A stretch of 64,000 bases of DNA from Myxococcota bacterium (GTDB taxonomy: Bacteria; Myxococcota_A; Bradymonadia; UBA7976; UBA1532). Position 1 is the stretch's first letter. Each line of letters begins with the position of its first letter. The stretch spans positions 1 through 64,000 of the forward strand of contig CAUJDF010000071.1 of NCBI GenBank assembly GCA_963169045.1, given 5' to 3'. The notes beneath the pieces were generated by a model. The model did not search any database and was not told where the DNA came from. It worked only from the letters and a program-made list of their open reading frames with translations. The position numbers and the translations under genes are program-made. Positions 15,647 to 61,133 of the stretch are shown piece after piece.

Positions 15647-15720
15647 CCCCCGGCGTGGCCCCCTCGCCCCGGGAGCGCGTCCCCTCCCGACCCCCGCTCG
15701 CCCCCCTCGCCCCCCCTCGC

Positions 15721-15735
15721 CCCGGCGATGCCGGG
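15721..15735 (+). terminator. hairpin after the PLD gene, no U-tract
   Basis: CCCGGC-gat-GCCGGG, a perfect 6-bp stem with a 3-base loop, about 75 bases after the PLD stop and following a C-rich tract (15647-15720). There is no T-run, so it may only stabilise the mRNA end. Confidence 0.3.
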
Positions 15736-15841
15736 ACGCGTGACCGGTGAGCGGGCACGCGCGGGAGACAGGGGGGAGACCCGGCACTCAGGCAGCTGAA
15801 CAACGCCGAGATGCTGCTGTTGACGCTGATGGCGCTCGCGC

Positions 15842-16036
15842 GCCTGCCTTTTCCCGGGCGGGCTGCCGATGGTCTCGCGGACCTGCGCCGAGGAGGCGGC
15901 CCACACGCGCCTCGCCACGGACCGCCTCGGCGGCGCCACACAGCCCGAGATCCTGCGCGCCTACCCACACCTTCAGCCGGACGCGCTCGAAGCCGCGATC
16001 CGCTTCGCCGCCCGCTCGCTCCAAGACGGGACCTGA
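15842..16036 (+). pseudogene. DUF433 antitoxin-like remnant
   Basis: The frame ending at 16034-16036 reads DRLGGATQPEILRAYPHLQP and continues DALEAAIRFAARSLQDGT, which matches the C-terminal half of DUF433. These are small DNA-binding proteins, usually the antitoxin partner of a PIN-type toxin. The expected N-terminal half (GxPxIxGTRxPV) is missing, and upstream stops break the frame near 15797 and 15825. No toxin gene is adjacent. The rest of the 15647-16055 interval is a C-rich tract with a hairpin and otherwise empty. Confidence 0.55.
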
Positions 16037-16055
16037 CGTTTTCGGGGCGCGGCGG

Positions 16056-19000
16056 TCAGGGGCCGGCGCGCAGCTGCACGCGCTCGGCGGCGTCCACGCG
16101 GCGCGCCCAGTCGGCGAAGCGCAGGTAGGCCTCGGGGTCGATGGCGCCGCCGGCGATCTGCAGGTGTGACGTGAAGCGGACGCGGTCCTCGCCGGGCTCG
16201 ACGGCGAGCACGTAGCGGTGGCGGGCTTCGGCGTAGCGGCCGGGGCGCGGCGTCACGTGGAGCGGGCGCTCGCTCGTGACGGTGACGGTGACGCGGGTGT
16301 CTGTCGGCAGCTCGATGAGCAGCGGGGTCTGTCGCTCGGGCAGCGCGGCCCAGGTGCGGCCGGGCGAGGCCGGGAACAGACCGAGGTCGAGGCGGTCGCC
16401 GGCCCTGGCTTCGAAGCGATAGCGCAGCGTGAGCGGACCGTCGGGGTCCTGCTGGCCGACCGGGTCGTCGAAGGACGTGACCTTCGCCGCGCCCACGACC
16501 GGCACCAACAGACGCTCCATGAGGCTGGCGCGCAGATTGGGATCCAGGCGAGACAGATAGGTGCCGATGACGATGGCTTCCTGGCCCTCGATGTGATCGA
16601 CGACGGTGCCTTCGATCACGCCGTCGGCGCGCCAGCGCAAGTCGAGCTCGACGGCGCGGGCGTCCGCGACGGCGCGGGTCGTGGGCAGCGGCTCGACGTC
16701 GCCGGCGGGCGGCCAGAGGGGGACGGCGTCGCCGCCGAGCATCGACGCGCCGAGGAAGCCGGGCGGGGCGCGGTCCGGGCCGGGGTCGAGCCACCAGGCG
16801 TCGGCGCCCGCGCCGAAGCGGATCAGCGGGTACGGGTAGTCGGCCACCTGCGCGAAGGGGCCCTCCGGGTCGTGGACGGCGGGGCGCGCGAGCAGCAGCG
16901 TGTGCTCGATCTCGGCGGTCTCGAGCGCGGCGGAGAGGACGAGCGCGCGGTTGCCGTGGCCGCTCTCGAGCATGGCCGGGGCGTCGTCCTCGACGAGGCC
17001 CACCTGGTCGTCGACGCGCTCCCGGACGGCGCGGGCGAGGCGCAGGGCGCGCGTGCGGTCGTCGCCTTCGCCGGCGGTGGCGTGCACCCACGACTCGAAG
17101 CGCGCCGTCCGGCGGCGACGGAAGAGCGTGCGGTCGCGCACATAGTCGAGGTCGTCGGCGAGCGTCGTGCCGCGGCCGGCGCGCACCGACGGCAGCCAGT
17201 GCGTCGCCGGGGCGGGGTCCGGCTCGCGGGCGAACAGCGCGACCTGGCGGACGTCGAAGCGCAGGCCCGCGCGGCCGGCGAGCGTGATCGCCGACGGGGC
17301 GGGCGCGCCGGCGAGCGTCTGCACGACCGGCGGCTTGTCGTCGGGCGAGAACACCTCGAAGCGCTGCCGGAAGATGGGCAGCTCGGTGCTGCGGAACCAG
17401 ATGCGCGGCGTCAGGAAGCCGCGGTCGTAGAGGTAGCCGTTGTCGCCGCCCTTCAGGTAGACGGCGACGACGTAGTCGCCGGCGGCGAGGTCCGGCATCG
17501 AGACGGTCTCCTTCTCGGGCGACTCCTCGGCGTAGAGCAGGCGGCCGTCGGCCTTGCGCGTGTAGAGCGCGACGGTGCGGACGCCGTCGGGCAGGCCGAT
17601 CTCGCCGAACGTCTCCGCGGCCTCGCGCGAGCGGATCGCCAGGATCTCGTGCACCCGGCGCAGGCTGCGGCCATCGGCGTAGTACAGGATCGCGGTGTGC
17701 TCGAGCACGCGGACGGCGGGGCCAGGGAGCGGCGGCTCGCTCTCGAACGCGGCGATCACCTGCTCGGTGTCGAGCGCGAGCGTCGCGAACGGGGACCACT
17801 CCGGCCAGGCCGCGACGAGCTCGATGCCTTCGCGCGAGGTGGGATGGCGACCGACGAGGCCGCGCAGGGCGTCGGCGAGCTTCGCGGGGTCGCGGGCGCC
17901 GGCGAGGTCGGCGGCGCGGAGCTGCCAGTGCGTGTCCGCGTCCTTCTCGAGCGCGGCGAGCGCCTCGTCCGTGCGGCCGAGCGCGAGCAGTGCGCGGGCG
18001 CGGGCGCGGCGGGCGCGGCGCTCGTCCCAGTGCGCGCCGCATGCCGGGGCGGCGGCCGCGCCGACGCTCGTCGCCGCGGGGCCCGGTGCCGCGCCGGGCC
18101 CGTCGCCGGCGGGCGCCGCGTCGGCGCTGCAGGCGTCGAGGCGCTGCAGCGCGTCGCCGGCGCGGCCGAGGTCGAGCAGCAGCTCGACCGCGTCGATCGG
18201 CTTGTCGCAGCCGACGTACACGTCGACCAGGCTGGCGCGGCCGCGCGCGTCTTCGCGGGCCTGCAGCCACGCGTCCTGCTCGTCGAGGAGGCGGCACGGA
18301 TCCGGCGCGGTGCGCAGGGCGGCGGCGAGCGCGTCGCCGGCGTCGTCGCGCCACCCCGAGTCCAGATCGAGGCGGAAGCGCTCCTGGTGCGCCACGTGGG
18401 CGTCGGGCGCGAGCGCGGCGAGCGCGTCGAGGTGGGCGCGGGCGGCGGCGACGTCGCCGGCGGCGCGGTCGATGCGCGCGAGCTCGAGATGCGCGAGGGC
18501 CGGGGCGAGCGGGCGCGCCGCGTTCCAGCCGGCGCGGGCGAGGTCGCGTGCGGCGCCGGCGGGCAGCCCCGTGTCGGCGGCGGCGAGCCGCGCGCGCATC
18601 GATGCGTAGCCCGGGGTGTCCGGCGCGCCGTCGATCAGCGCGTGCGCCGTCTCGGTGTCGCCGTCGAGCAGCGCCGCCTCGGCGCGAATGGCGGCGGCGA
18701 CGCGATCCCCCGGGTCGACGCCGCCGGGCGTGGGCGTCGTCCAGCGCCAGAGGCGCGGCAGCTCCGGCGCCGCCCAGACCGTGACCAGCGGCCCCCGGCC
18801 GGGCGCGTCGAAGCGCAGGGTCCCGGGCGCGACGCGGTCCAGCGCGGTGGCGAGGACGACGCGTTCGCCGCGCCAGGCGATCATCGGGCCGCCGACGCGG
18901 GCCTCCAGCGACGCCGGCCCATCGGGCAGCGGCCAGACGGTGAGCACGAGGCCGTCGCGGTCCGGCGCCGGCGGCGTCGCCGCAAGCGGCCTCAGCTCGC

Positions 19001-45635: not shown

Positions 45636-46202
45636 GTGTCGCTCCCTGTCGGCCACGCCCTCGTCGGCTCGCTCGTCTACGCCGCCCTCGACCGCCGCGT
45701 GCGCTTCTGCTCGCGCCGCACCGCCTGGCTGCTCACGCTCGTCCTGCCGTCGGTGCCCGACTTCGACTTCGGCTTCGTCTGGATCCTCGGCTTCCCGGAA
45801 CACTGGCACCGCCACTTCACGCACTCGCTCTTCTTCGCCGCGGGGCTCGGCGCGCTCGCAGCCCTCTGGGTGCGCACGCGCGGCCGCGAGGGACCGGGCT
45901 GGGCCTTCCTCTTCGTGACGCTGCTCGTGGCGTCCCACGACCTCGTCGACATGGTGGGCTACGGACCGGACGACGGCCCGGGCGGCGGGGTGCCGCTGCT
46001 GTGGCCGGGCTCGGACCGCTTCTACGAGCTGCCGTGGCAGTTCCTCCCGCCCGGGACGGGCGAGAGCTTCTTCTGGTACCTGCGCACGGCCTGGATGGAG
46101 CTCTTCTTCCTCGGACCGCCGGTGGCGATCGTCTGGGCGATCAAACGCTGGCGCGCCGACGCCGCCGCAGGCCGGCGAGGACGAGCAGGCCCAGGGGCGT
46201 GA
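45636..46202 (+). CDS. YdjM-like membrane-bound metal-dependent hydrolase (DUF457)
   Basis: 188 residues from GTG 45636. HALVGSLVYAAL near the start, PSVPDFDFGF, HWHRHFTHSLFFAAGLG and SHDLVDMVG carry the conserved His/Asp ligands of the YdjM/DUF457 family, between four to five TM helices. Family members are predicted inner-membrane hydrolases linked to DNA-damage control in E. coli. The last 20 codons overlap, antisense, the C-terminus of the convergent DUF2330 gene by 62 bases, and there the reading becomes Arg/Gly-rich, so the real protein may have a frayed, non-conserved tail. Confidence 0.83.
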   Translation: MSLPVGHALVGSLVYAALDRRVRFCSRRTAWLLTLVLPSVPDFDFGFVWILGFPEHWHRHFTHSLFFAAGLGALAALWVRTRGREGPGWAFLFVTLLVASHDLVDMVGYGPDDGPGGGVPLLWPGSDRFYELPWQFLPPGTGESFFWYLRTAWMELFFLGPPVAIVWAIKRWRADAAAGRRGRAGPGA

Positions 46203-47750
46203 GCGAGGCACCGCCGGCCACGTCGCACCCGTCGTCGGCCGCCTTCGTGCCGCCCGGCTCGTCCTCTTCGATCTCCGGGCGCCGGTCCTCTTCGATCTCG
46301 GGCTGTCCGGCCGTGAGCAGCTGCTCGATCACCGCCGCCGCGGGCACGCCCATGCCGCGCACCGTCTGCCCCTCGCTGCGCCGGATGACGCGCGGGTTGC
46401 TGCCGTCGTCGCCGATGCGCACGCTGCCGCCGGCATCGGCCGCGAGCACCTGGCCCACCGTGTCGCCGCCGTCGTCGCACGTGACATACAGCGTCGCCGT
46501 GTGCACGTTGCTCACGTCGGGCAGGTCGCCGTTGAAGTCGAAGGACGGGTCGGCGTTCATCTCGGCGGGGCTCATCGTCGAGTAGAGGCGCGTCACGTAG
46601 GGCTGCGCGGCGAGCAGCGCGCGCAGGGTCTCGCGCGGCGCGTCGATCTCCGCCTCGACCTTGGCGGCGATGGCGTCGCCGTCCGCCGGCGCGGTCATGT
46701 CGGCGCCGACGCACTCCGGGCACTGCAGCCAGAACGCCGCGTTCTGCCCCTCGGGCAGCGCGATCTCGCCGTCGAGGATGCGCGCGAGGTCCGCGTCGCC
46801 GGCGAAGTTGAAGCCGGAGCCGACGATGACGCTGTGCACCTCGCCGCTCGTGTCGGCCTCGCGCAGCGCCACGACCAGCCCGTCGGGCGTGCCCGGCAGC
46901 GCGTCCTGCAGCGCGTTGTGGGGCCCGGCGTAGTCGGTGGCGAACGCCTGGCCGCCCGCCTCGTCGACGGCCTGGCTCACCACGTCCGGGTAGTTCTGCC
47001 CGCCGCCGAGCCAGTCGATCGCGCTCTCGTTGATGCGCACGTGACGGTAATTCACCGGCACCGCCCGCGAATCTCCGAGGATGTGCACGATGATGCCCAT
47101 GTCGGGGTTGGCGGCGACGGACGTCGGCACGATGGGGATCGCCGGCCGGTTGCCCGGGAACCGCAGCCGCACCGGCTGGATGTCGCCCTCGTCGGCGCCC
47201 GGCAGCAGCTTGAGCGCGACGAACACCGCACCCGCCTCGAGGTACGGCTGCAGCTTCGCGTCGATGCCCTCCGGGACCTGGAACTCGTTCTCGTCGAGCC
47301 ACGCGCGCAGGTCGGCGATGCTGCGCGCCTCGAGGACGGCCTGGTCGTAGGGGCCCACCGCCTCGCGCGAGAGCACCTCGACGCCGCGGCCACCGCCGCC
47401 GCCGTCCTCGGCGTTGGGCGCGCCGGCGGCGAAGTCGGGCACCGCGCAGTTCTCGCCGAAGTCGCGGTTGAGCTGGAACACGGGGGCGAACCGCTGGTCG
47501 AGCAGCGTGAAGAGCTGCTCGCTCGACAGGTCCGTCCTGACGCCGCGCGGCACCGGCAGCAGCCAGCCGAAGTCGGTCGGCGGACCCTGGTAGGTGATGC
47601 GCACGTGCATGTCGACGTGGCCGTCGTCCACCGCGAAGAGGATGCGCTCCGCCGCCTGGTTCACCGGCGTCGTCGTGTTGCAGAACAGGCCGCCGCAGGC
47701 GAGCGCCGCCGACGGCGCGGCCGCGAGCGCGGCGGTGATGACGAGCTTCT

Positions 47751-47754
<4 letters not shown>
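46141..47754 (-). CDS. DUF2330 exported protein with MYXO-CTERM-like tail
   Basis: 537 residues. The Sec signal ends ...SAALACGG, and CGGLFCNTTTPVNQAAERILFAVDD is the DUF2330 start, with two Cys at once after cleavage. The DUF2330 body (~20-330) includes GWLLPVP and the YVTRLYSTMSPAEM block near its end. The C-terminus GCDVAGGASLTPLGLLVLAGLRRRRR is a MYXO-CTERM sorting signal (small Cys motif, TM helix, Arg cluster), processed by a myxosortase in Myxococcota. Function of DUF2330 is unknown. Coupled to fumC by an ATGA overlap, an odd partner. Confidence 0.88.
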
Positions 47755-49318: not shown

Positions 49319-50995
49319 ATGAAACGACAGACACTCGCCGCGCTGGCGCTGCTCGCCGCGCCGGCGCCCGCCCTCGCCTGCGGCGGCTTCTTCTGCAGCT
49401 CGGCGCCCGTCGACCAGAGCGCGGAGCGCATCCTCTTCGTGCAGGAGGACCCGCAGACCGTCTCCGCCTACGTCGAGATCAAGTTCGCCGGCGATCCCGA
49501 GACGTTCTCGTGGATCGTGCCCGTCCCCGCCAAGCCCGACATGGACGTGTGGCACGGCGCGGCCTTCGACGCGCTCGACCAGGCGACGCAGCCGGTCTTC
49601 AACACGCCGTGGCAGTGCTTCGCGCCCGAGGCCGCGGCGGGCGGCGGCCTCGACGACGACGCCGATCCGGCGCCGGTGAACGTGCTCGCCCGCGAGCAGA
49701 TCGGCGACTACGACACGGCGGTGATCGAGTCGTCCGATCCGCGCGCGCTCGTCGAGTGGCTGCGCACCAACGGCTACCGCATCACCCCGGAGATGGAACC
49801 CTTCGTCGCGCTCTACACCGCCGAGGGCATGAAGTTCACCGCGATCAAGCTCGTGGCCGGCAAGGGCATCGACTCGATCAAGCCGCTCAAGATGACCTAC
49901 CCGAGCGGCGGGCCGACGGTGCCGCTGCGCCTGACGTCGATCGCCGCCCAGCTCGAGATGGGCGTGAAGGTCTGGATCGTCGGCGACCAGCGCTTCGGGC
50001 CGATCGAAGGCGTCGAGAACCTCGAGCTCGACGACGCCGAGCTCGTCTTCGATCCCAACACGTTCCAGACGAACTACCTCCCGCTCGTGGCGCGCAAGGT
50101 GGACGCCGCCGGTGGGCGCGCCTTCTTCACCGAGTACGCGCAGCCCAGCGGGCCGCTCGCCGACCAGATCGAGGGGGGCGGCGTGCCGGACTGGGCCGAC
50201 GAGGACGCCCACGCCGCGTTCGACGGCCTCCTGCAGGTCCTCCGCAGCAAGACCTACGTCACGCGCCTGTACACGCGGCTGTCGCCCGAAGAGATGACGT
50301 ACGACCCGATCTTCGTCCCGATCGAGGGCGGCGATGTGTCGAACGCGCACACCGTCCCCGTGCCGCCGGGCGTCGACCCGAACAGCTGCGGCGGCATCGA
50401 CGAGACGGCGCTCCCCGATCCGTGCGAGTTCGTCGCGTGCGGCGCCGGCGGCCAGTGCTTCGTCGCGCAGGACGGCGCGACCGGCGCGGTCGAGACGGGC
50501 TGCGCCTGCGCCGAGGGCGCCGTGGCGCGGCCCCAGGGCGACGTCGCGCCGGGCGGCGCGGTGCGGCCGACCGTCGCGTGCGGCGACGCGCGCCTCAACT
50601 TCACCGCGCCGGACCTCGTGATCGACCGGCCCGACCTCACCTTCTCGTTCGACCCGTGCCGCAGCGATCCGTGCGGCGACGGCGGCGAGTGCGTGGCGAT
50701 GAACGGCTCGCAGTCCTGCCGCTGCGAGCGCGGCTTCGTCGCCGTGGGGCGCGTCGACCCCGAGGGCAAGCCGTTCGCCACCTGCGTCGAGCCGCGCGAC
50801 CGCGTCCCCGACGAGTTCTACGAGCGCGAGCTGCCCGAGCCGGACCTGCCGTTCCCCGGCCGCCGGGCGAAGAGCCGCGGCGCCGCCGTCGCGGACGACG
50901 GCTGCAGCGCCGTCGGATCGAGCGCGCCCGCCGGCCTCGCGCTGCTCGCCCTTGTCTTCGCGCCGCTCGCCCGCCGCCCGCGCCGCCCGCGCTGA
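49319..50995 (+). CDS. DUF2330 exported protein with EGF-like module and MYXO-CTERM tail
   Basis: 558 residues, paralogue of the DUF2330 gene on the other side of fumC. Signal and mature start ALACGGFFCSSAPVDQSAERI, then the DUF2330 body to about residue 345. Residues ~365-490 are cysteine-rich: CEFVACGAGGQCFVAQDGAT and CRSDPCGDGGECVAMNGSQS are EGF-like repeats. The C-terminus GCSAVGSSAPAGLALLALVF plus an Arg cluster is a MYXO-CTERM sorting signal. GGGAG about 8 bases before the ATG. Convergent with the PilZ gene, 4 bases apart. Confidence 0.88.
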   Translation: MKRQTLAALALLAAPAPALACGGFFCSSAPVDQSAERILFVQEDPQTVSAYVEIKFAGDPETFSWIVPVPAKPDMDVWHGAAFDALDQATQPVFNTPWQCFAPEAAAGGGLDDDADPAPVNVLAREQIGDYDTAVIESSDPRALVEWLRTNGYRITPEMEPFVALYTAEGMKFTAIKLVAGKGIDSIKPLKMTYPSGGPTVPLRLTSIAAQLEMGVKVWIVGDQRFGPIEGVENLELDDAELVFDPNTFQTNYLPLVARKVDAAGGRAFFTEYAQPSGPLADQIEGGGVPDWADEDAHAAFDGLLQVLRSKTYVTRLYTRLSPEEMTYDPIFVPIEGGDVSNAHTVPVPPGVDPNSCGGIDETALPDPCEFVACGAGGQCFVAQDGATGAVETGCACAEGAVARPQGDVAPGGAVRPTVACGDARLNFTAPDLVIDRPDLTFSFDPCRSDPCGDGGECVAMNGSQSCRCERGFVAVGRVDPEGKPFATCVEPRDRVPDEFYERELPEPDLPFPGRRAKSRGAAVADDGCSAVGSSAPAGLALLALVFAPLARRPRRPR

Positions 50996-51946: not shown

Positions 51947-53785
51947 GTGCCACACGGTGGCGCGCGGCTCCACGCGACGGAACGGCCGTTGCTCTTGCCG
52001 GGGAAGGTGGGGAGAAATCTCGTCATCGCCGTTGCGTCGGTGCTCGCGGTCGCCTGCGGCGAAGTCGCGACGACCGACGTGCGCCCGGGCGGCGTCCATC
52101 CCGCCGGGTGGGCCGACGCGCACGGCGCCGCGCTGCGGGCCGGCGGTCACGACCTCGACCCGTGTTATGCCTGCCATCGCGAGGGCGAAGAATCCTTCGT
52201 ATGCAATGAATGCCATACGAAGGGGCCCGAGTCCTGCGACACGTGCCACGCGACGCCGCCGCCGCCGCACGCCGCCCACGGCGACTACCCGTGCGGGACG
52301 TGCCACGTCGTGCCCGGCGGGCTGCGGGCGCCCGGCCACCTGCAGGACCGCGGCCCCGGCGACGTGCGCTTCGCGGGGGGGCTCGCGGGCAGCGCCGCCG
52401 CCTTCAACGGCGAGACGTGTAGCGATACGCGCTGCCACGCCGGCCCCGGGGCGGCCCTGCCCACCCCCGCCTGGGCGCCGCGCGAGATCGCCTGCGGCGA
52501 CTGCCACTCGTCGCCGCCGCCCGAGCACCCGCAGGACCGCTGCGATCGCTGCCACACCGGCGGCGGCGGCGACGGTCACGTCGACGGGCGCGTCGCGGTG
52601 AACGACGCGCGCCGCGACGGCTGCGACGCCTGCCACGGCGCCGCCGGCGATCCCGCCCCCCCGCCGGGCCTCTCCGGATCGAGCGACCCCGCCGATCCCG
52701 GCGTCGGCGCGCACCTCGCGCACCTGCGGCCCGCGCAGTCGGCCCCCGTCGCCTGCGAGACGTGCCACGTGGTCCCGCGCCGCCCCACCGATCCCGGACA
52801 CCTCGACGGGGTCACCCAGGTCCTCGTCGGACGGTACGCCGCCGGCACCTGCGCCGACACCGGCTGCCACGGGTCGGACCGGCCCACGTGGACGGGCGAG
52901 GCGCCGTGCGGCTCGTGCCACGGGACGCCGCCCGCGGGGCACCCGGCCGGCGACTGCGCCCGCTGCCACCTGACGGCGGCCCCCGGCGGCGGCATCGCCC
53001 TGCCGGCGGCCCACGTCGACGGCCGCGTCGACGCCGGCGGCGAAGACTGCGCCGCGTGCCACGGCGACGGCGGGCGCGTGCCGCCCGGCGGCAGTCACGC
53101 CGCCCACGCCCGCTACGCGTGCGCGACCTGCCACCCGGCGGGCACGCACCTCGACGGCGCGGCGCAGGTCGCGATCGCCGCGGGCGGCACGTTCGAGCGC
53201 GGGCGCTGCGCCGACGCCGCGTGCCACGGCCCGAACCGCCCCGTCTGGGGCCGCGCCGAGACGGTCGAGGGCTGCGGGTCGTGCCACGGCGCCCCGCCCG
53301 CGGACCACCCCGAAGGCGCGTGCGCGACGTGCCACCCGGCCGAGCGCCACGCCGACGGGCGCCTCGACGTCGCGCTGCCCGAGGACTGCGGCGCGTGCCA
53401 CCTCGCCGAACCCGTGAGCGGCGCCCACGCCGCCCACCGCGCCGGGACGCGCGCCGCGGTCGTGCCCTGCGGCACCTGCCACCGCGTCCCCGAGCGCCCC
53501 GACGCGCCCGGTCACCTCGACGCCGCGCCGGTCGAGGTCGTGCTCGCCACCGGCGTCGTGCGCGACGGCACGTGCGCCGACACCGCGTGTCACGCCCAGC
53601 CCGGCGCGGGCCGCCCCGCACCGGCGTGGACCGACGGTCCGCAGGCGTGCGACGCCTGCCACGGCCTGCCGCCGCCCGCCCACTGGACGTTCCCCTGCGC
53701 GACGTGCCACTCGGCCGTCGTCGACGCCGACAACCGCATCATCGCCCCGGCGCGCCACGCCGACGGCCGGGTGGATCTGCGATGA
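51947..53785 (+). CDS. multihaem c-type cytochrome lipoprotein (CxxxxCH/CxxCH type)
   Basis: 612 residues with 18 CxxCH and 4 CX4CH motifs (CSDTRCH, CADTGCH, CADAACH, CADTACH), the mix seen in Geobacter-type CxxxxCH/CxxCH cytochromes. Motifs repeat in blocks, each with a C(A/S)DxxCH followed by GSCHGxPPxxHP. Lipobox ASVLAVAC follows a long N-region when read from GTG 51947; GTG 52007 (VGRNLVIAVASVLAVAC) would give a standard signal, so the start is uncertain. Expected outside the inner membrane, probably at the outer membrane. It is the first gene of the operon and its stop overlaps the porin gene start (ATGA). Confidence 0.9.
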   Translation: MPHGGARLHATERPLLLPGKVGRNLVIAVASVLAVACGEVATTDVRPGGVHPAGWADAHGAALRAGGHDLDPCYACHREGEESFVCNECHTKGPESCDTCHATPPPPHAAHGDYPCGTCHVVPGGLRAPGHLQDRGPGDVRFAGGLAGSAAAFNGETCSDTRCHAGPGAALPTPAWAPREIACGDCHSSPPPEHPQDRCDRCHTGGGGDGHVDGRVAVNDARRDGCDACHGAAGDPAPPPGLSGSSDPADPGVGAHLAHLRPAQSAPVACETCHVVPRRPTDPGHLDGVTQVLVGRYAAGTCADTGCHGSDRPTWTGEAPCGSCHGTPPAGHPAGDCARCHLTAAPGGGIALPAAHVDGRVDAGGEDCAACHGDGGRVPPGGSHAAHARYACATCHPAGTHLDGAAQVAIAAGGTFERGRCADAACHGPNRPVWGRAETVEGCGSCHGAPPADHPEGACATCHPAERHADGRLDVALPEDCGACHLAEPVSGAHAAHRAGTRAAVVPCGTCHRVPERPDAPGHLDAAPVEVVLATGVVRDGTCADTACHAQPGAGRPAPAWTDGPQACDACHGLPPPAHWTFPCATCHSAVVDADNRIIAPARHADGRVDLR

Positions 53786-54972
53786 AGGCCCCCCTCACCC
53801 TCGGAGCGCTCTGCGCGGCGATCGCGTCGGGCGGGCTCGCCGCCGCGGAGCCCGCGGCCGCGCCCGCCGGCGAGGTCGTCGCGCGCACGAGGCTCTGGCT
53901 GCGCCTCGATCCGCGCGCCGACGACGCGATCGGCAGCGTGTCGGTGGCGGCGCGCGGCGACGTCGACGCCGAGGCGAGCGCGTGGATCGCGGGGTGGCCG
54001 CGCGACGAGGGCGATCCGGTCACCGGCGACGTGCGGACGCTCTTCGTGCGCGACACGTTCGGGCCGGCCTGGGTGGCGATCGGCCGGCAGTGGACGGCGA
54101 TCGGCGGGCTGCGGCTCGAGACGTTCGACGGCGCGACGGCCGGCATCGGCTGGGATCCCGTGGCCGTGCGCGCCCGCGCGGGCCTCGCGCGCCCCGACGA
54201 GGGGCCCGGTTTCGGCGACGCGCTGCTCGCCGCGGCCGAGGCGGCGGTGACCGCCGGCGACGTGTCGGCCACCGTCGGCGCGAGCCTCGAGCGCGCCACC
54301 GACGTGGCGCCCCGCGGCCGCTGGACGCTCGCCGCCGACTGGGTGCCCTCCGCCGACTTCACCGCCCGCGCCGGCGCCACCGCCGACGCCGCCGCGCGCG
54401 CGCTCGTCGAGGCGCGGATCGAGGTCGGCGCCCGTCCGCTGGATTACGTGTGGATCCGCGGCTTTGCGCGACGCACGCACCTCGACCGCCTGCTCGGCGC
54501 CGACGAGATCCTCAGCGCGTTCGCCGTCGCCGAAGCCGAGAACGAGGCGGGCGGCGTCGCCGAGTGGCGCGTGGTCGAGGCGGTCTCGGTCCGCGGCGAG
54601 GGCGCGGCGCTGGGCCCGGCCGAGAGCCGCTGGCGCACGGGCGTCGACGTGCGCCCCGCGGCCGGCGCGTGGGTCGGCGGCGAGGGCACGCTCCTGCTCG
54701 ACCACGACGGCCGCACCGCCATCGCCCGCGCCGGCACCCGCTGGCCGCTCGTCGCGACGCTCTTCGGCACCGCCGATCTCGTGGTCGCCGAGGGCGACGA
54801 CGCGTGGACGCGCACCGGCCGCCTCGGCCTCGGCCTGACGCCCTGGGAGGACTGGACGCTGTTCGGCGCCTTCGAAGCGGAGCGATCCATCGCGTGGCGC
54901 GAGCGCTACGCCGGCCTGGTGCTGCTCGAGTACGCGCTCGGCGCGCCCACCCGCTTCGGAGGCATCCCGTGA
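53782..54972 (+). CDS. outer-membrane beta-barrel, porin of the cytochrome conduit
   Basis: 396 residues with a Sec signal (TLGALCAAIASGGLAAAE). The rest is alternating strands with aromatic ends and short turns (WVAIGRQWTAIGGLRLETFDG; WTLAADWVPSADFTARAGATAD; WVGGEGTLLLDHDGRTAIARAGTRW) and ends in a short tail after ALGAPTRFG. No haem motif. It is embedded between two multihaem genes with ATGA and GTGA overlaps. That order is what porin-cytochrome complexes (MtrB or OmbB type) show: the porin houses a cytochrome that crosses the outer membrane. It is shorter than MtrB (~700), so fewer strands are expected; I count room for about 16-20. Confidence 0.75.
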   Translation: MKAPLTLGALCAAIASGGLAAAEPAAAPAGEVVARTRLWLRLDPRADDAIGSVSVAARGDVDAEASAWIAGWPRDEGDPVTGDVRTLFVRDTFGPAWVAIGRQWTAIGGLRLETFDGATAGIGWDPVAVRARAGLARPDEGPGFGDALLAAAEAAVTAGDVSATVGASLERATDVAPRGRWTLAADWVPSADFTARAGATADAAARALVEARIEVGARPLDYVWIRGFARRTHLDRLLGADEILSAFAVAEAENEAGGVAEWRVVEAVSVRGEGAALGPAESRWRTGVDVRPAAGAWVGGEGTLLLDHDGRTAIARAGTRWPLVATLFGTADLVVAEGDDAWTRTGRLGLGLTPWEDWTLFGAFEAERSIAWRERYAGLVLLEYALGAPTRFGGIP

Positions 54973-55979
54973 AGCGCCTCCTGCCGCTGCTGCTGCTCGC
55001 CGCGTGCGCCTCCGAGACGCGCGCCCCGCGCGAGGCGGGCGTGGGGCACGTGGCGCACGCGCGCGCCGGCGTGCACTGCACCCGCTGCCACGGCGACCTG
55101 GCCGTCGGTCCGGCGCCGCACCTGCCCGACGACGCCACCTGCGCCGGCTGCCACGCCGAGGCGCACCCCGGCCAGGAGAACCGCGCCTGTACGGCGTGCC
55201 ACGTCGACGCCGACGCCCGCGCCACGCTCGTCACCGCGGCGGCGGCGATGCGCTTCGACCACGCGCGCCACCTGCCCGAGGTGCGCGGCGACTGCGTCGG
55301 GTGCCACCGCGGCGCCGTGCGGCCCGACGTCGAGCACCCGAGCGGACTGCCGGCGATGAACGACTGCCGCCCCTGCCACGACGACCTGCTCGACCGCGGG
55401 ACGTGCGACGCGTGCCACGTCTCGCTCGCGCAGTACCCGGTGCGCCCGGCCACCGGCATGGCCCACGCCGCCGACTTCCTGCGCCGGCACGCGCTCGAGG
55501 CGCGCGTCGCCCAGGACCGCTGCGCGTCGTGCCACACGCAGTCGTCGTGCGCCGACTGCCACGACCAGCGCGCGCCGCTCGCGCCCGACGTGGCGTTCGC
55601 GGACCGCCCGGACCGCGCCTTCGTGCACCGGCCCGGCTACGTCGGCTGGCACGCCGGCGAGGCCCGTCTCGACGGCGCCGCCTGCCTGGGCTGCCACGGC
55701 GAGTCGTCGTGCGCCGCGTGCCACGCGCAGCGGCTGCCCGCCGGCTCGCCGCACCCCGCCGACTGGGCCTCGCCCGGTCCCGGTCCGAACCTGCACGCCG
55801 CCGCCGCCCGCCGCGATCTGATGGCCTGCGCCGGGTGCCACACGGGATCGGGCGGCGACACGTGCGTCGCGTGCCACGCGTCGGGGCGCCCCGGCGGCTC
55901 CCCGCACGGCGGCGCCCGGCCCGCCGGCGATCCGACGCGCGACCGGCCGTGCCGCGCCTGCCACGGAGGTGCGCCGTGA
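54969..55979 (+). CDS. 13-haem c-type cytochrome lipoprotein
   Basis: 336 residues from GTG 54969, whose GTGA overlaps the porin stop. Lipobox LLLLLAACAS puts the lipid at Cys13. There are 13 CxxCH motifs, some paired closely (CASCHTQSSCADCH; CLGCHGESSCAACH), as in compact haem wires. The mature part has almost no other domain. Placed after the porin gene, it is a candidate for the cytochrome inserted in or docked to the porin, on the periplasmic side. Confidence 0.92.
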   Translation: MKRLLPLLLLAACASETRAPREAGVGHVAHARAGVHCTRCHGDLAVGPAPHLPDDATCAGCHAEAHPGQENRACTACHVDADARATLVTAAAAMRFDHARHLPEVRGDCVGCHRGAVRPDVEHPSGLPAMNDCRPCHDDLLDRGTCDACHVSLAQYPVRPATGMAHAADFLRRHALEARVAQDRCASCHTQSSCADCHDQRAPLAPDVAFADRPDRAFVHRPGYVGWHAGEARLDGAACLGCHGESSCAACHAQRLPAGSPHPADWASPGPGPNLHAAAARRDLMACAGCHTGSGGDTCVACHASGRPGGSPHGGARPAGDPTRDRPCRACHGGAP

Positions 55980-57988
55980 TCCGCCGGCTGCTGCGGCGCT
56001 ACCGCAAGTTCCTGCTCATCGCCGGCGCGGCGAGCGTGATCATCGGCGCGCCCATCGCCTACAAGGCGCACGACTACATCCAGAACGACCCGAACTTCTG
56101 CACGTCGTGCCACATCATGGACGACGCCTTCAGCCGCTGGTCCGAGAGCGGCCACAAGGACGTCAACTGCCACACGTGCCACCCCGGCGATCTCGCCAGC
56201 AACCTGCACCAGGTCTGGGTGACGTTCACCTCCGACCAGAGCACGGTGAAGAAGCACGCCCACGTGCCCGCGGAGATCTGCGGGCAGTGCCACCTGTCGA
56301 ACGACCCGAAGTGGAAGCAGATCGCGGAGACCGCCGGCCACAAGCTGCACTTCGGGCAGCTCGGCGTGCAGTGCGTGACGTGCCACGCCGCCGAGATCCA
56401 TCAGTTCCGGCCGACCGACGAGATGTGCAAGGGGTGCCACTACACGCAGACCGTCGGGCTGACGGCCATGCAGCGCAACCACTGCACGTCGTGCCACGAC
56501 TTCCTCGGGCCGGTGGCCGCGGGGCTGCGGCCGGACAACGCGAAGTGCGGCGAGTGCCATGCCCAGGGCATCGACGGCGCGCCGGCGCTCGCCACGGGCT
56601 GGCACGACGGCGTCGCGTGCGGTGACTGCCACCCCGTGCACGACCCGGCGATGAACTCCGACGAGGCGCCGACGCGCGACGGCGCCGCGCGTCCCTGCGC
56701 CGAGTGCCACGCCGACGTCCCCGATCCCACGTTCGTGTTCGGCGGGGAGGACGCGTCGCGGTCGCGGACGGCGAAGGCGGCCGGCGGACGGGCGGGCGCC
56801 GCCCGGGGCCGCGGCGCGCGCAGCGGCCTGCCGGGCGAGGGCCACGACCGCTGCGCCTCGTGCCACGTGCCGCACTCCGCGGTGTCGCCGGTGGAGCGGT
56901 GCCGCGACTGCCACGTCGACGCCGCGGCGCGCCTGCCCGTCGACGGGCCGCACGTCTGCACCGACTGCCACGTGGCGCACGAGCCGGACGTCGACCCGCG
57001 CGACCGCTGCGACGACTGCCACCGTCCGGCGCAGGCGCTCGCCGCCGCCACGCCGGTCGCCGAGCACCGCGACTGCGTCAACTGCCACGAGGCGCATGCG
57101 CCGGGCCCGCCCGACGCGCCCGCGTGCGCCAACTGCCACGCGGACGAGGCCCGGCTCGCGCGCGCCGGCGGCCCCGCCGCCCACCAGCAGTGCGCGGGCT
57201 GCCACAAGGTCCACGCGCCGGAGTCGCCGCGCCGCTGCGCCAGCTGCCACGGCGAGCCCACCGCGGCCGACGCGCCCCCCGCGCACCGCGACTGCGACAA
57301 CTGCCACCGTCCGCACGGATCGCCGCTCGCCGGCGAGGCGAAGTGCGCGGAATGTCACGCAAATCCGGTGCAGCAGGCCGCGCTCGGCCCGCGGGAGCAC
57401 GGCCGCTGCGGCGACTGCCACACGGCCCACGATCCGACGCCGGTGCCCGGCGACACCTGCGCCGGCTGCCACACGGTCCGGACCGACGCGCCGCACGCGG
57501 ACTGCACCTCGTGCCACCCGCGCCACGACCGCCGTCCGCCGGCGGCCCTGTGCGCCGGCTGCCACGCCGAGAAGGTCCAGCGCGGCATCCCGGCGGGCCA
57601 CGCCGACTGCACCGGCTGCCACGCGCCGCACCGCGTCTCCCCCGAGGGCGCGTGCGCCGCCTGCCACGCCGGCCCGGCGGCGGGCGCCCGCACCGCGGCC
57701 CGGCCCGAGCACCGCGAGTGCGCGAGCTGCCACGGCGACGCGCACGGCCGGGCCGCGCCGTCCTGCAAGGACTGCCACGCCGACGCCACGAGCACCGGAT
57801 TGCACGCCGTGGAGGCGCACCGCGACTGCGCGGGCTGCCACGGCGACCACCCGCCCCGGCCGGCGCCGGCGCGGATCTGCCTCGATTGCCACGACATGGA
57901 TCGCATCGCGCGCCATCCCCCGGAGGCGCGCGGGGTCACGACGTGTTCGGGTTGCCACAACTTCCGGGGGAAGGGAGAGGGACGATGA
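55976..57988 (+). CDS. 30-haem NapC/NirT-anchored cytochrome
   Basis: 670 residues from GTG 55976 (GTGA overlap with the stop before it; GGAGG 6 bases upstream). The N-terminus is a single TM helix (YRKFLLIAGAASVIIGAPIAY), followed by NDPNFCTSCHIMDDAF, the NapC/NirT signature of quinol-oxidising anchors. The first nine CxxCH (residues ~41-245) form the NapC/NrfH-like and spacer part. After a low-complexity linker (~255-285) come about 21 further CxxCH motifs in an array of about 17-23-residue repeats (C..CHxxHxP). In total 30 haems. It would take electrons from menaquinol and hand them across the periplasm. I know no named family combining both parts. Confidence 0.9.
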   Translation: MIRRLLRRYRKFLLIAGAASVIIGAPIAYKAHDYIQNDPNFCTSCHIMDDAFSRWSESGHKDVNCHTCHPGDLASNLHQVWVTFTSDQSTVKKHAHVPAEICGQCHLSNDPKWKQIAETAGHKLHFGQLGVQCVTCHAAEIHQFRPTDEMCKGCHYTQTVGLTAMQRNHCTSCHDFLGPVAAGLRPDNAKCGECHAQGIDGAPALATGWHDGVACGDCHPVHDPAMNSDEAPTRDGAARPCAECHADVPDPTFVFGGEDASRSRTAKAAGGRAGAARGRGARSGLPGEGHDRCASCHVPHSAVSPVERCRDCHVDAAARLPVDGPHVCTDCHVAHEPDVDPRDRCDDCHRPAQALAAATPVAEHRDCVNCHEAHAPGPPDAPACANCHADEARLARAGGPAAHQQCAGCHKVHAPESPRRCASCHGEPTAADAPPAHRDCDNCHRPHGSPLAGEAKCAECHANPVQQAALGPREHGRCGDCHTAHDPTPVPGDTCAGCHTVRTDAPHADCTSCHPRHDRRPPAALCAGCHAEKVQRGIPAGHADCTGCHAPHRVSPEGACAACHAGPAAGARTAARPEHRECASCHGDAHGRAAPSCKDCHADATSTGLHAVEAHRDCAGCHGDHPPRPAPARICLDCHDMDRIARHPPEARGVTTCSGCHNFRGKGEGR

Positions 57989-60126
57989 AACGCTGGTTGA
58001 CCGCGAGCGTCGCGCTGCTCGCGCTCGCCTGCGAAGGTCCGACGGGATCGCGCGGACCGCAGGGCGAGCAGGGCGAGCCCGGGGCCGAAGGTGAGCCCGG
58101 CCAGCAGGGCCCGCAAGGTCCGCAAGGGGACGAAGGCGACCCCGGCGGCGCGGGCGGACGCGGCGAGCAGGGCGAGGACGGGCCGCAGGGCCCCGCGGGC
58201 GAGGACGGCGAGCCCGGCGCGCCGGGCGAGCAGGGCGAGCAGGGCGAGCAGGGTCCGGAGGGGCCGCAGGGTCCCGGCGGCGAGGACGGCGACGACGGCG
58301 CCGACGGCCGCAGCGCGCTCTTCACCGACGAAGAGGTGATCGTGGTCGTCGACTCGGTCGACGTCGACGAAGCCGGCCGCCCGATCGTGATGTTCCGCCT
58401 GACCGACGGCGACGACAAGCCGCTCGACCGCACCGGCACCTACACCGAGGGCGTCGTCGACCTCGCGTACACGCTGGCCGTCTACAACGCCGACGACACG
58501 TGGACGAGCTACATCACCCGCGAGGCCCGCGCCGGTCAGGTCGTCACGCAGCAGGCGACGAGCGAGAACAACGGCGCGCTCGAGCCCCTCGAGTTCGGCC
58601 AGTACATGTACACCTTCGCGACCGCGCTGCCCGCCGAGGCGGATCGCGAACGGCCGCACCGCATCGTCATCGGCGCGCGGCGCACGCTGCAGGACGGCGC
58701 CCGCACCGGCTCCTCGACCGCCGTCGACTTCGTCCCGTCGAGCGACGAGGTGCCGGTCGTGCCGCCGAACGTGGACGTCGACAACTGCAACGCGTGCCAC
58801 CGCGGCCTCGAGGGCCACGGCGGCCGCTGGACGGACACGACCGCCTGCGTGACGTGCCACACGGCGCAGACGATCGACCCGGACACCAACAACTCGGTGC
58901 GCTTCGACATCATGGTCCACCGCATCCACGCCGGCGCGAACCTGCCGAGCGTCCAGGGCGGCGAGCCCTACCAGATCATCGCCCGCGGCACGGTCCACGA
59001 CTTCTCGAACGTCGTGTTCCCGCGGCGCCTGGCCGACTGCAACGCCTGCCACGTCGAGGGCAAGCCGGGCGGCGCCGAGGTCACCTCGTGCACGTCGTGC
59101 CACGACCGCACCGCGTTCGGCCAGCAGGTCCCCGACGGCTGGACGCGCCACCTCGCCGGCCCGCAGCCCGAGGACCGCTGCGCCGCCTGCCACCCCGCCG
59201 ACGCGCCGTCGCCGGGCGTGTGGGACGCGCACCGCGCGCCGCTGCTCGACCCCGCGCTCGAGCTTGCGGGCCTGCGCACGGAGATCCTCGGGGTCGACGG
59301 CGCGGCGGCCGGCGCGGCGCCGACCGTGCGCTTCCGCCTGCTCGACGGCGCCGGCCAGCCCGTCGATCCGGCGCGCCTCGACAGCCTCGAGGTCACGGTC
59401 GCCGGCCCGGTGCCGGACTTCTCGTGGACGGTGACCAACGGCGGCGTGCAGGCGCGCGTGGTGGCCGACGGCGACGCGCTCGCGGTGCCGCTGGCGAATC
59501 CGATCCCGGCGGACGCCACGGGCACCGTCGCCGTGGGCATGGTCGCGTACCGCTACGTGCCCTACGGCTCGGGGCGCAACGACTCGATCGGCCGCGAGAC
59601 GGGCGGCAATCCGGTCGCCTACGTCGCGCTCGGCGAGGGCGCCGCCGCACGGCCGCGCAACGAGGTCGAGCTGGCGAAGTGCAACGCCTGCCACGGCGAG
59701 CTGGCGCTGCACGGCGGCTCCCGCAAGGAGATCGCGTACTGCCAGGAGTGCCACCACCAGAATGCGACCGACGTCGCGCGCCGTCCCGCGGATCAGGGCC
59801 CCCCGGCGAGCATCGAGCTCGGGCCGATGGTGCACGGCATCCACGCCGGCCACATGCGCGAGAACGGGCTCGTGATTTACGGCTTCGGCAACTCGCGGCA
59901 CGACTTCGGGCACGTCGCGTTCCCCGGCGCGCTGAATGACTGCGGCGCCTGCCACACCGGCAGCGGCTGGACGGATCCGTCGACGAAGATGTGCACGAGC
60001 TGCCACGACAGCAGCGACGCGAAGGCCCACGCCGCGCTCGAGACGGCGCCCGACGGCACCGAGGCCTGCGGCGTCTGCCACGGCCCGGGCCGCGAGTTCG
60101 CCGTCGACGTGCTTCACGCCCGCTGA
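57985..60126 (+). CDS. decaheme OmcA/MtrC-like surface cytochrome on a collagen-like stalk
   Basis: 713 residues from ATG 57985 (ATGA overlap). Lipobox ALLALAC puts the lipid at Cys16. Residues 18-110 are 31 uninterrupted Gly-X-Y triplets (GPQGEQGEP-like), a collagen-like stalk rich in Pro, Glu and Gln. The rest is an OmcA/MtrC-family decaheme cytochrome: a split beta domain (LFTDEEVIVVVDSVDVDEAG...), then CNACHRGLEGHGGRW with five haems (CxxCH at CNACH, CVTCH, CNACH, CTSCH, CAACH), a second beta domain, and five more (CNACH, CQECHH, CGACH, CTSCH, CGVCH), ten in total. MVHRIHAGANLP and MVHGIHAGH mark the two pentahaem halves. Terminal surface electron donor by analogy with MtrC/OmcA. Confidence 0.93.
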   Translation: MKRWLTASVALLALACEGPTGSRGPQGEQGEPGAEGEPGQQGPQGPQGDEGDPGGAGGRGEQGEDGPQGPAGEDGEPGAPGEQGEQGEQGPEGPQGPGGEDGDDGADGRSALFTDEEVIVVVDSVDVDEAGRPIVMFRLTDGDDKPLDRTGTYTEGVVDLAYTLAVYNADDTWTSYITREARAGQVVTQQATSENNGALEPLEFGQYMYTFATALPAEADRERPHRIVIGARRTLQDGARTGSSTAVDFVPSSDEVPVVPPNVDVDNCNACHRGLEGHGGRWTDTTACVTCHTAQTIDPDTNNSVRFDIMVHRIHAGANLPSVQGGEPYQIIARGTVHDFSNVVFPRRLADCNACHVEGKPGGAEVTSCTSCHDRTAFGQQVPDGWTRHLAGPQPEDRCAACHPADAPSPGVWDAHRAPLLDPALELAGLRTEILGVDGAAAGAAPTVRFRLLDGAGQPVDPARLDSLEVTVAGPVPDFSWTVTNGGVQARVVADGDALAVPLANPIPADATGTVAVGMVAYRYVPYGSGRNDSIGRETGGNPVAYVALGEGAAARPRNEVELAKCNACHGELALHGGSRKEIAYCQECHHQNATDVARRPADQGPPASIELGPMVHGIHAGHMRENGLVIYGFGNSRHDFGHVAFPGALNDCGACHTGSGWTDPSTKMCTSCHDSSDAKAHAALETAPDGTEACGVCHGPGREFAVDVLHAR
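58036..58314 (+). repeat. collagen-like Gly-X-Y repeat of the surface cytochrome
   Basis: A 9-base-period coding repeat (ggcgagcag, ggcccgcag and variants), 31 triplets without interruption. It should form a trimeric triple helix or at least an extended stalk. Confidence 0.9.
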
Positions 60127-60149: not shown

Positions 60150-61133
60150 GTGCGCCGCCTCGCCACCGCCTGCCTCCTGCTCCTCGCCCTCGCCGCCGAC
60201 GCGCTCGGCGCCCCCCGGCACTTCGTCTTCTTCGGGAGCGACCGGGAGCGCATCCGCGAGCGCAGCTTCCTCGACGCCCCCCACGTCGCCGGCGCGCAGC
60301 TCAGGTACAGCTGGCGCGAGCTCGAGCCCGAGCGCGGCCGCTACGCGCTCGGGCCGCTCCTCGAAGACCTCGCGTTCCTCGAGCGCCACGGCAAGCGGCT
60401 CTGGGTGCAGATCCAGGACGTGTCCTTCTCGGCGCGCGTGCTGGTCCCCGAGTACCTCGTGAAGGATCCGGCCTTCGGCGGGGGCGTGGCGCCGCAGTTC
60501 TCGGAGGGCGCGCCGCCGCGCTTCGCCGGCTGGGTGGCGCGGCGCTGGGATCCGGCGGTGCGCGCCCGCTTCGTCGCGCTGCTCGAGGCGGTCGGCGCCG
60601 CCGTCGACGGTCGCGTCGAGGGGGTGAACCTGGCCGAGACCTCCATCGAGCTCGCCGATCCCGGCCCGGCCGGGTTCACCCCCGCCGGTTACGCCGCGGC
60701 GATTCGGGAGATCATGACCGCCGCGCGCAAGGCGTTCTCGCGCTCGCGGGTGATCGTCTACGCCAACTTCATGCCGGGCGAGTGGCTCCCCCACGACGAT
60801 CGCGGGCACCTGCGCGCGATCTACGCGCACGCCGGGCGCATCGGCGTCGGCGTCGGCGGACCCGACCTCCTGCCGCACCGCAAGGGTCAGCGGAACCACA
60901 GCCTGCCGCTCATCGCCGCGCGCGGTCCCGACGTGGTCGCCGGTGTCGCCGTCCAGGACGGCAACCTCGCCGACAAGGACGCGGCCACGGGCCGGCCCGT
61001 GACCGTGGCCGCGCTGTACCGCTTCGCCCGTGACTCGCTGCGGCTCGACTACCTCTTCTGGGGGACCGAGGAGCCTTACTACTCGCGGGACGTGCTGCCG
61101 TTCCTGCGCGCGCTCGCCGCCGGCGCCGAGTAG
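60150..61133 (+). CDS. exported glycoside hydrolase-like TIM-barrel protein
   Basis: 327 residues from GTG 60150, signal RLATACLLLLALAADALGA. The body reads as a (beta/alpha)8 barrel: AQLRYSWRELEPERGRYALG (Trp/Glu-containing first strand), ERHGKRLWVQIQDVSF, EGVNLAETSIEL and SRVIVYANFMPGEWLP. This is like family-A glycosidases (GH42/GH5-like), with Glu in NLAE and possibly in WGTEE as acid/base and nucleophile. Substrate unknown. It lies 23 bases after the cytochrome operon but has its own promoter-like element. Confidence 0.72.
   Translation: MRRLATACLLLLALAADALGAPRHFVFFGSDRERIRERSFLDAPHVAGAQLRYSWRELEPERGRYALGPLLEDLAFLERHGKRLWVQIQDVSFSARVLVPEYLVKDPAFGGGVAPQFSEGAPPRFAGWVARRWDPAVRARFVALLEAVGAAVDGRVEGVNLAETSIELADPGPAGFTPAGYAAAIREIMTAARKAFSRSRVIVYANFMPGEWLPHDDRGHLRAIYAHAGRIGVGVGGPDLLPHRKGQRNHSLPLIAARGPDVVAGVAVQDGNLADKDAATGRPVTVAALYRFARDSLRLDYLFWGTEEPYYSRDVLPFLRALAAGAE

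What the first reader, a model, noticed from the sequence alone, without database searches (positions are those of the whole stretch)
51947..60126. Five-gene operon for a complete inner-membrane-to-surface electron conduit with 75 haem motifs
Seen: five genes joined by ATGA/GTGA overlaps carry 22, 0, 13, 30 and 10 Cx2-4CH motifs in this order: lipoprotein cytochrome, beta-barrel, lipoprotein cytochrome, NapC/NirT-anchored cytochrome, OmcA/MtrC-type surface cytochrome. Known: a porin with flanking multihaem lipoproteins is the pattern of porin-cytochrome complexes, and NapC/NirT anchors oxidise menaquinol. Inference: the operon contains every step from quinol to cell surface, in a lineage (Myxococcota) where such conduits are little described.
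Basis: partly seen in the sequence, partly recalled or inferred. Interest (0 to 1): 0.9.

Follow-up and report, generated by a model that had tools for sequence, protein, structure and literature searches.

The report
Myxobacterial envelope-spanning electron conduit operon
Five adjacent genes of an uncultured myxobacterium encode what looks like a complete haem wire from the inner membrane to the cell surface, built on a known type of outer-membrane conduit but with two unusual parts: a 30-haem wire fused to a quinol-oxidising head, and a surface cytochrome on a collagen-like stalk.

Summary
Five genes joined by 4-base overlaps (51947-60126, +) carry 22, 0, 13, 30 and 10 haem motifs. Seven other genomes of the same family hold the core; the counts 22/13/30/10 recur in every complete copy but one (21). 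The haem-free protein models as a 22-strand outer-membrane barrel. It belongs to a barrel family that sits beside a 10-14-haem cytochrome in 52 of 53 fetched loci. That core matches porin-cytochrome (Pcc) clusters reported in 2014, including from Anaeromyxobacter, a myxobacterium, so the conduit type is not new to the lineage. It is not MtrAB by profile. Most likely mechanism: quinol to g4, across the periplasm to g3 in the barrel, then to surface cytochromes g1 and g5. Order, direction and substrate are inferred. New variant of a known kind.

The parts
51947..53785 (+). g1: 22-haem lipoprotein cytochrome (18 CX2CH + 4 CX4CH), probable outer-membrane/surface cytochrome of the trio; start possibly 52007
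   Evidence: NCBIfam TIGR01904 CxxxxCH/CxxCH domain E 6.5e-20; 22 haems in 6 of 7 relatives, 21 in one
52055..52057 (+). g1 lipobox cysteine (Cys37 of the 51947 start), the only cysteine outside haem motifs
53782..54972 (+). g2: 396-aa haem-free outer-membrane beta-barrel (22 predicted strands)
   Evidence: AlphaFold2 mean pLDDT 77.8, 22 strands; top Foldseek hits in PDB are outer-membrane barrels, E down to 1.5e-7, TM below 0.5; profile-related to barrels in other phyla
54969..55979 (+). g3: 13-haem cytochrome predicted to act inside or under the barrel
   Evidence: homologs with 10-14 haems next to the barrel; lipobox Cys13 not conserved in L023/L024
55976..57988 (+). g4: inner-membrane-anchored 30-haem cytochrome (NrfH/NapC-like head plus long haem chain)
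   Evidence: 30 haems in all six f1 copies read; 60 of 60 cysteines in haem motifs
56012..56182 (+). g4 NapC/NirT-like segment: single N-terminal helix, CTSCHIM (Met48 invariant) and haem 2
   Evidence: PF03264 24.5 bits, cut-off 24.1; aligned to NrfH 2j7a_C; invariant columns
57985..60126 (+). g5: collagen-stalked OmcA/MtrC-family decahaem surface cytochrome
   Evidence: TIGR03507 332 bits, cut-off 209; PF22113 E 1.3e-40; OmcA 4lmh E 1.9e-19
58036..58314 (+). g5 collagen-like tract: 31 uninterrupted Gly-X-Y triplets directly after the lipobox
   Evidence: 31-42 triplets in four of four copies examined, this one included

Best explanation
This operon encodes an extracellular-electron-transfer conduit spanning the cell envelope. 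g4 sits in the inner membrane by one helix; its NrfH/NapC-like head exchanges electrons with menaquinol and its long haem chain carries them across the periplasm. There it meets g3, the 13-haem cytochrome held in or under the g2 barrel, which brings electrons through the outer membrane. g1 (22 haems) and g5 (decahaem head on a collagen-like stalk) are lipid-anchored outer-membrane cytochromes that pass electrons to or from an extracellular partner, probably Fe(III)/Mn(IV) minerals, humics or another cell. Shown by sequence: the parts, their anchors, family assignments and conserved linkage. Inferred: contact order, outward direction, surface exposure, substrate, and trimerisation of g5.
For: Haem counts are far above shuffles and cysteines fall cleanly into haem motifs plus lipoboxes. 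g5 is OmcA/MtrC family above cut-off. g2 models as a 22-strand barrel, its top structural matches are outer-membrane barrels, and its strands alternate in hydropathy (2.32 against null 1.38, sd 0.21). g4 carries an NrfH/NapC-like head with an invariant CxxCHxM. Synteny in seven relatives. In three genomes of a second family the NapC-type tetrahaem protein (above Pfam's cut-off) and the 25-27-haem chain are separate genes in the same cluster, as expected if the fused parts act together. The barrel has a 10-14-haem neighbour in 52 of 53 fetched loci; all 20 further Myxococcota loci carry g1-like + barrel + g3-like. The genome has cytochrome c assembly genes.
Against: No expression, localisation or activity data. 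The barrel model used 8 sequences, has TM below 0.5 to solved barrels, and its closure was not measured. g3 models poorly (pLDDT 68, pTM 0.47) and matches no solved fold, so its place inside the barrel is untested. The NapC/NirT match of g4 is marginal in this genome. A rigid stalk of 93 residues would be about 26 nm long, far from the barrel unless flexible or bridged by g1. L021 lacks g4 and g5 at the expected place, so the full set is not obligatory.
Confidence: 0.75

Rival explanations
1. The same machine running inward: electrons from an extracellular donor (Fe(II), a cathode, a syntrophic partner) enter through g1/g5 and g2-g3 and reduce quinone through g4.
For: Sequence does not fix direction. 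CbcL/MtoC/MtrH-type quinone-linked cytochromes occur in both metal reducers and metal oxidisers (PMC6295460).
Against: OmcA/MtrC-family heads such as g5 are known mainly from mineral reducers, and a CymA/NrfH-type head usually oxidises menaquinol (established knowledge). Shi et al. 2014 noted no pcc cluster in known Fe(II) oxidisers (PMC4245776).
Confidence: 0.15
2. A reductase for a specific soluble or polymeric compound outside the cell, or a haem capacitor buffering electrons during short oxygen shortage, rather than a mineral-respiration wire.
For: 75 haems is a large store. Some Pcc carriers do not reduce solid Fe/Mn oxides (PMC4245776). No dedicated catalytic subunit is present.
Against: An outer-membrane barrel with its dedicated cytochrome and an OmcA/MtrC head implies transfer to the outside; no terminal reductase lies in the operon.
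Confidence: 0.12
3. g2-g3 (with g1) is the only true conduit. g4 serves other periplasmic acceptors, g5 is mainly a collagen-like adhesin or matrix protein, and linkage is loose cytochrome clustering.
For: The g1-g2-g3 trio is far commoner than the full set. L021 lacks g4 and g5. Collagen-like tracts resemble the Scl adhesins.
Against: Four-base overlaps join all five genes. g4 is linked in six of eight family copies, with a contig end accounting for one of the other two. g4-like genes recur beside the trio in five loci of another family. g5 keeps all ten haem motifs.
Confidence: 0.15

Closest known systems
Porin-cytochrome (Pcc) clusters of Anaeromyxobacter and Ignavibacterium album (Shi et al. 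2014, PMC4245776)
   Same: Barrel plus periplasmic cytochrome of 338-344 aa with 12-14 haems (Anaeromyxobacter) or 400 aa with 14 haems (I. album); here 336 aa with 13. A locus titled Anaeromyxobacter (L059) and a Melioribacteraceae locus (L069) carry homologs of both genes.
   Different: Anaeromyxobacter clusters lack outer-membrane cytochromes; here g1 and g5 are present, plus an inner-membrane 30-haem cytochrome.
OmbB-OmaB-OmcB (Pcc) and ExtABCD/EFG of Geobacter sulfurreducens
   Same: Barrel, periplasmic cytochrome and lipoprotein cytochrome(s) in one cluster. Related barrels occur in 39 of 58 genomes sampled from the order of a Desulfuromonas locus.
   Different: OmaB has 8 haems and ExtA 12; no NapC-type gene or OmcA/MtrC cytochrome is part of those complexes. 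Direct homology to OmbB or ExtB was not tested.
MtrCAB + CymA of Shewanella and the R. ferrireducens cluster with two cymA and mtrABC
   Same: Same logic: NapC/NirT quinol oxidase, periplasmic cytochrome in a barrel, OmcA/MtrC decahaem surface cytochrome (g5 is a family member).
   Different: g2 and g3 match no MtrB or MtrA/DmsE model. CymA is a tetrahaem protein; here the head is fused to a ~26-haem chain. MtrC/OmcA have no collagen stalk (own knowledge).
OetABI conduit of ANME-partner sulfate reducers (PMC10553843)
   Same: Porin with periplasmic and lipoprotein extracellular cytochromes.
   Different: Accompanied by OmcS/OmcX filament cytochromes; no NapC-fused wire or collagen-stalked OmcA/MtrC protein described. 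Sequence relation not tested.

Membership tests
Porin-cytochrome (Pcc-type) complex, broad sense | Haem-free outer-membrane barrel encoded beside a periplasmic multihaem cytochrome | tested here: met
   (barrel); g3 adjacent; 52 of 53 barrel loci have a 10-14-haem neighbour
Porin-cytochrome (Pcc-type) complex, broad sense | Sequence homology to OmbB/OmaB of Geobacter | not tested
   No named Geobacter sequences at hand; homologs in loci titled Anaeromyxobacter and Melioribacteraceae match the published Pcc sizes and haem numbers
Porin-cytochrome (Pcc-type) complex, broad sense | Electron transfer across a membrane by the purified complex | not testable with these tools
   needs proteoliposome assay
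MtrAB/PioAB family | Barrel matches MtrB/PioB models | tested here: not met
   g2 has no Pfam or NCBIfam hit at E 0.1; MtrB is not among the 50 best fold matches
MtrAB/PioAB family | Periplasmic partner is a DmsE/MtrA-type decahaem cytochrome (TIGR03508) | tested here: not met
   g3 has 13 haems and no TIGR03508 hit; no fold match to MtrA (low-confidence model)
OmcA/MtrC decahaem family (g5) | TIGR03507 above curated cut-off and ten haem motifs | tested here: met
   332 bits against 209.3; ten CX2CH
OmcA/MtrC decahaem family (g5) | Lipoprotein exposed at the cell surface | tested here: inconclusive
   lipobox Cys16 present; exposure not testable
NapC/NirT (NrfH/CymA) quinol dehydrogenase (head of g4) | N-terminal helix plus NapC-type haem motifs, PF03264 cut-off | tested here: inconclusive
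   PF03264 24.5 bits against 24.1 by locus but not listed in the whole-protein scan; NrfH 4.8e-10 below equivalog cut-off; NrfH structure 9e-8
NapC/NirT (NrfH/CymA) quinol dehydrogenase (head of g4) | Quinol oxidation | not testable with these tools
   needs assay; the CxxCHxM Met of haem 1 is invariant

The most novel reading that the evidence does not exclude
Two departures from known conduits: one polypeptide (g4) runs from the quinol pool to the outer-membrane complex as a covalent 30-haem wire, making diffusible periplasmic cytochromes unnecessary; and the terminal OmcA/MtrC cytochrome is a collagen-triple-helix trimer held up to tens of nanometres from the membrane, giving about 30 surface haems per assembly.
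Probability: 0.35. Interest if true: 0.75.

Novelty: new variant of a known kind. Interest (0 to 1): 0.55.

Why it matters
How electrons cross the periplasm in extracellular respiration is disputed (diffusing small cytochromes against fixed bridges). A cluster in which a quinol-dehydrogenase head is covalently fused to a chain of about 26 haems, in one apparent operon with the outer-membrane conduit, makes the fixed-bridge idea directly testable with one protein. The collagen stalk suggests a new way to place a terminal cytochrome away from the membrane. The same barrel family in about a third of sampled Myxococcota genomes implies that extracellular electron transfer is more widespread in this phylum, best known for predation and social behaviour, than its few described examples suggest.

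Tried and rejected
MtrAB/PioAB membership of g2-g3: rejected (no MtrB/PioB or DmsE hit). Chance motifs or a frame artefact: rejected. The downstream gene at 60150 (327 aa, 24 bases after g5) as a sixth member: rejected, no counterpart in relatives. g3 as an obligate lipoprotein: rejected. Placing g3 by structure: alignment of 30 homologs gave pLDDT 68 and no solved fold, no use. Promoter and terminator scan: nothing above background. Paper searches for a collagen-stalked OmcA/MtrC cytochrome or a NapC-multihaem fusion in a conduit found none; the open-access library is incomplete, so this is weak evidence of novelty.
Full report
What is there. Five plus-strand genes at 51947-60126 overlap by four bases at each junction. 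They carry 22 (18 CX2CH + 4 CX4CH), 0, 13, 30 and 10 haem motifs, 75 in all. Shuffled proteins give at most 0.5 CX2CH motifs on average. All 60 cysteines of g4 sit in haem motifs; g1, g3 and g5 each have exactly one extra cysteine, at the lipobox. Non-motif histidines are enough for bis-His ligation in g1, g3, g4 and g5. No other haem-rich ORF lies in the window.

Families. g5 is a member of the OmcA/MtrC decahaem family (TIGR03507 332 bits, cut-off 209; PF22113 E 1.3e-40; solved OmcA 4lmh). Between lipobox and head it has 31 uninterrupted Gly-X-Y triplets (Pfam Collagen E 1.4e-12); the three relatives examined have 32-42. g1 has the CxxxxCH/CxxCH domain (TIGR01904). g2 has no family hit. g3 has only general cytochrome c7/c3 hits and no MtrA/DmsE hit. 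g4 begins with one hydrophobic helix and a NrfH-like stretch: NrfH E 4.8e-10, solved NrfH 2j7a E 9e-8 with the CTSCHIM motif aligned, and PF03264 just over its cut-off in the whole-genome search. Met48 of the CxxCHxM motif is invariant in the six copies aligned.

The barrel. With eight family sequences g2 modelled as 22 strands (mean pLDDT 77.8). The best PDB matches are outer-membrane barrels (best E 1.5e-7, TM below 0.5). The strands alternate in hydropathy more than shuffles (2.32 against 1.38, sd 0.21). Closure of the barrel could not be measured. The f1 barrel profile matches barrels of other Myxococcota and Deltaproteobacteria at 96-98% probability, and the Deltaproteobacteria profile in turn matches barrels of Bacteroidota/Ignavibacteria, Geothrix and Desulfuromonas at 98-99%.

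Linkage. g2 homologs occur in 8 of 13 family genomes, counting this one. In all eight the barrel is followed at once by the 13-haem gene, and a g1 homolog is in the cluster. g1 has 22 haems in six relatives and 21 in one; g4 has 30 in all six copies read and g5 has 10 in all four. g4 is linked in six of eight: the contig of L022 ends there, and L021 really lacks g4 and g5 at that place. In two relatives g1, or g1 and g5, lie on the opposite strand of the same cluster. Five relatives also carry an octahaem protein beside the cluster, missing here. Titles of the same contigs in genome contigs name uncultured Myxococcales and Myxococcota MAGs.

Wider family. In three genomes of a second family of the class, the cluster has the OmcA/MtrC gene, the octahaem gene, a g1-like gene, a tetrahaem gene, the barrel, g3 and a 25-27-haem gene. 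There the tetrahaem protein is NapC/NirT above cut-off and the long chain lacks the NapC head. The window's g4 therefore looks like a fusion of two parts that other genomes encode separately in the same cluster. A profile of 16 barrels found matches in 132 of 379 Myxococcota genomes and in 39 of 58 genomes from the order of a Desulfuromonas locus. A 10-14-haem ORF adjoins the barrel in 52 of 53 fetched loci, the exception being a short fragment. All 20 further Myxococcota clusters examined carry g1-like + barrel + g3-like genes; five also have a 27-33-haem g4-like gene, and several have collagen-tract cytochromes. These loci were chosen as top barrel hits, so the fractions describe that set.

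Comparison with the literature. Shi et al. 2014 (PMC4245776) reported Pcc clusters in Anaeromyxobacter with periplasmic cytochromes of 338-344 aa and 12-14 haems (a range that also covers Kuenenia) but no outer-membrane cytochrome, and in I. album with a 400-aa, 14-haem cytochrome. These match the g3 family here, and loci titled Anaeromyxobacter and Melioribacteraceae carry homologs. The trans-outer-membrane core is therefore a known kind, known also from one myxobacterial genus. A cluster joining cymA to mtrABC is known from R. ferrireducens (PMC6295460). I found no report of a NapC head fused to a chain of about 26 haems, nor of a collagen-stalked OmcA/MtrC cytochrome, in an incomplete library.

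How it probably works (inference from the above). Menaquinol is oxidised at the g4 head. Electrons run along its chain; 30 haems at MtrA-like spacing could span most of a periplasm. They pass to g3 in the g2 barrel and leave through g1 and g5. A triple helix of 93 residues would be about 26 nm (0.286 nm per residue, own knowledge), so g5 is either a flexible long-reach terminal or is fed through g1. The genome has cytochrome c assembly genes. Direction and substrate cannot be read from sequence.

Verdict. Observation confirmed. Interpretation largely right on parts and logic, corrected on lineage novelty and on what is proven. New variant of a known kind.

Noticed in passing
L153:7390-10649 (own genome, contig C93): A second, stripped conduit in the same genome: a related barrel followed by a 12-haem g3 homolog, with no other haem-rich gene nearby, like the outer-cytochrome-free Anaeromyxobacter type.
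   Followed up: partly
L090:9035-11314 (own genome, contig C94): A 759-aa ORF with 30 CX2CH motifs; no other ORF with more than two motifs lies in the 19 kb around it.
   Followed up: no
L018:1922-3850, L020:376-2388, L022:4412-6067, L023:2806-4665, L024:6199-8142: Octahaem surface-type cytochrome beside the conduit in five relatives, some with a carboxypeptidase-regulatory-like domain (L018) or a collagen-like tract (L020, L024); absent from the window's cluster.
   Followed up: partly
L172, L175, L178: g4-like 33-haem proteins whose first N-terminal motif is CX3CH (FCGGSCH, FCTASCH, FCTQGCH) instead of CX2CH.
   Followed up: no
L043:8296-14606 and L045:8368-15856: In another family a two-gene barrel + 13-haem conduit lies next to genes starting with pilin-like GFTLVEL motifs and a large ORF, in two genomes.
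   Followed up: no
window 46141-47754 and 49319-50995: Two related exported proteins (ACGGLFC, ACGGFFC near the signal peptide) close to the operon; homologs also lie near the L023 cluster (14010-17583).
   Followed up: no
L159, L167, L168: Long Gly-X-Y tracts (17-34 triplets) in other OmcA/MtrC-type cytochromes near Myxococcota conduits, so collagen stalks on surface cytochromes may be general in the phylum.
   Followed up: partly
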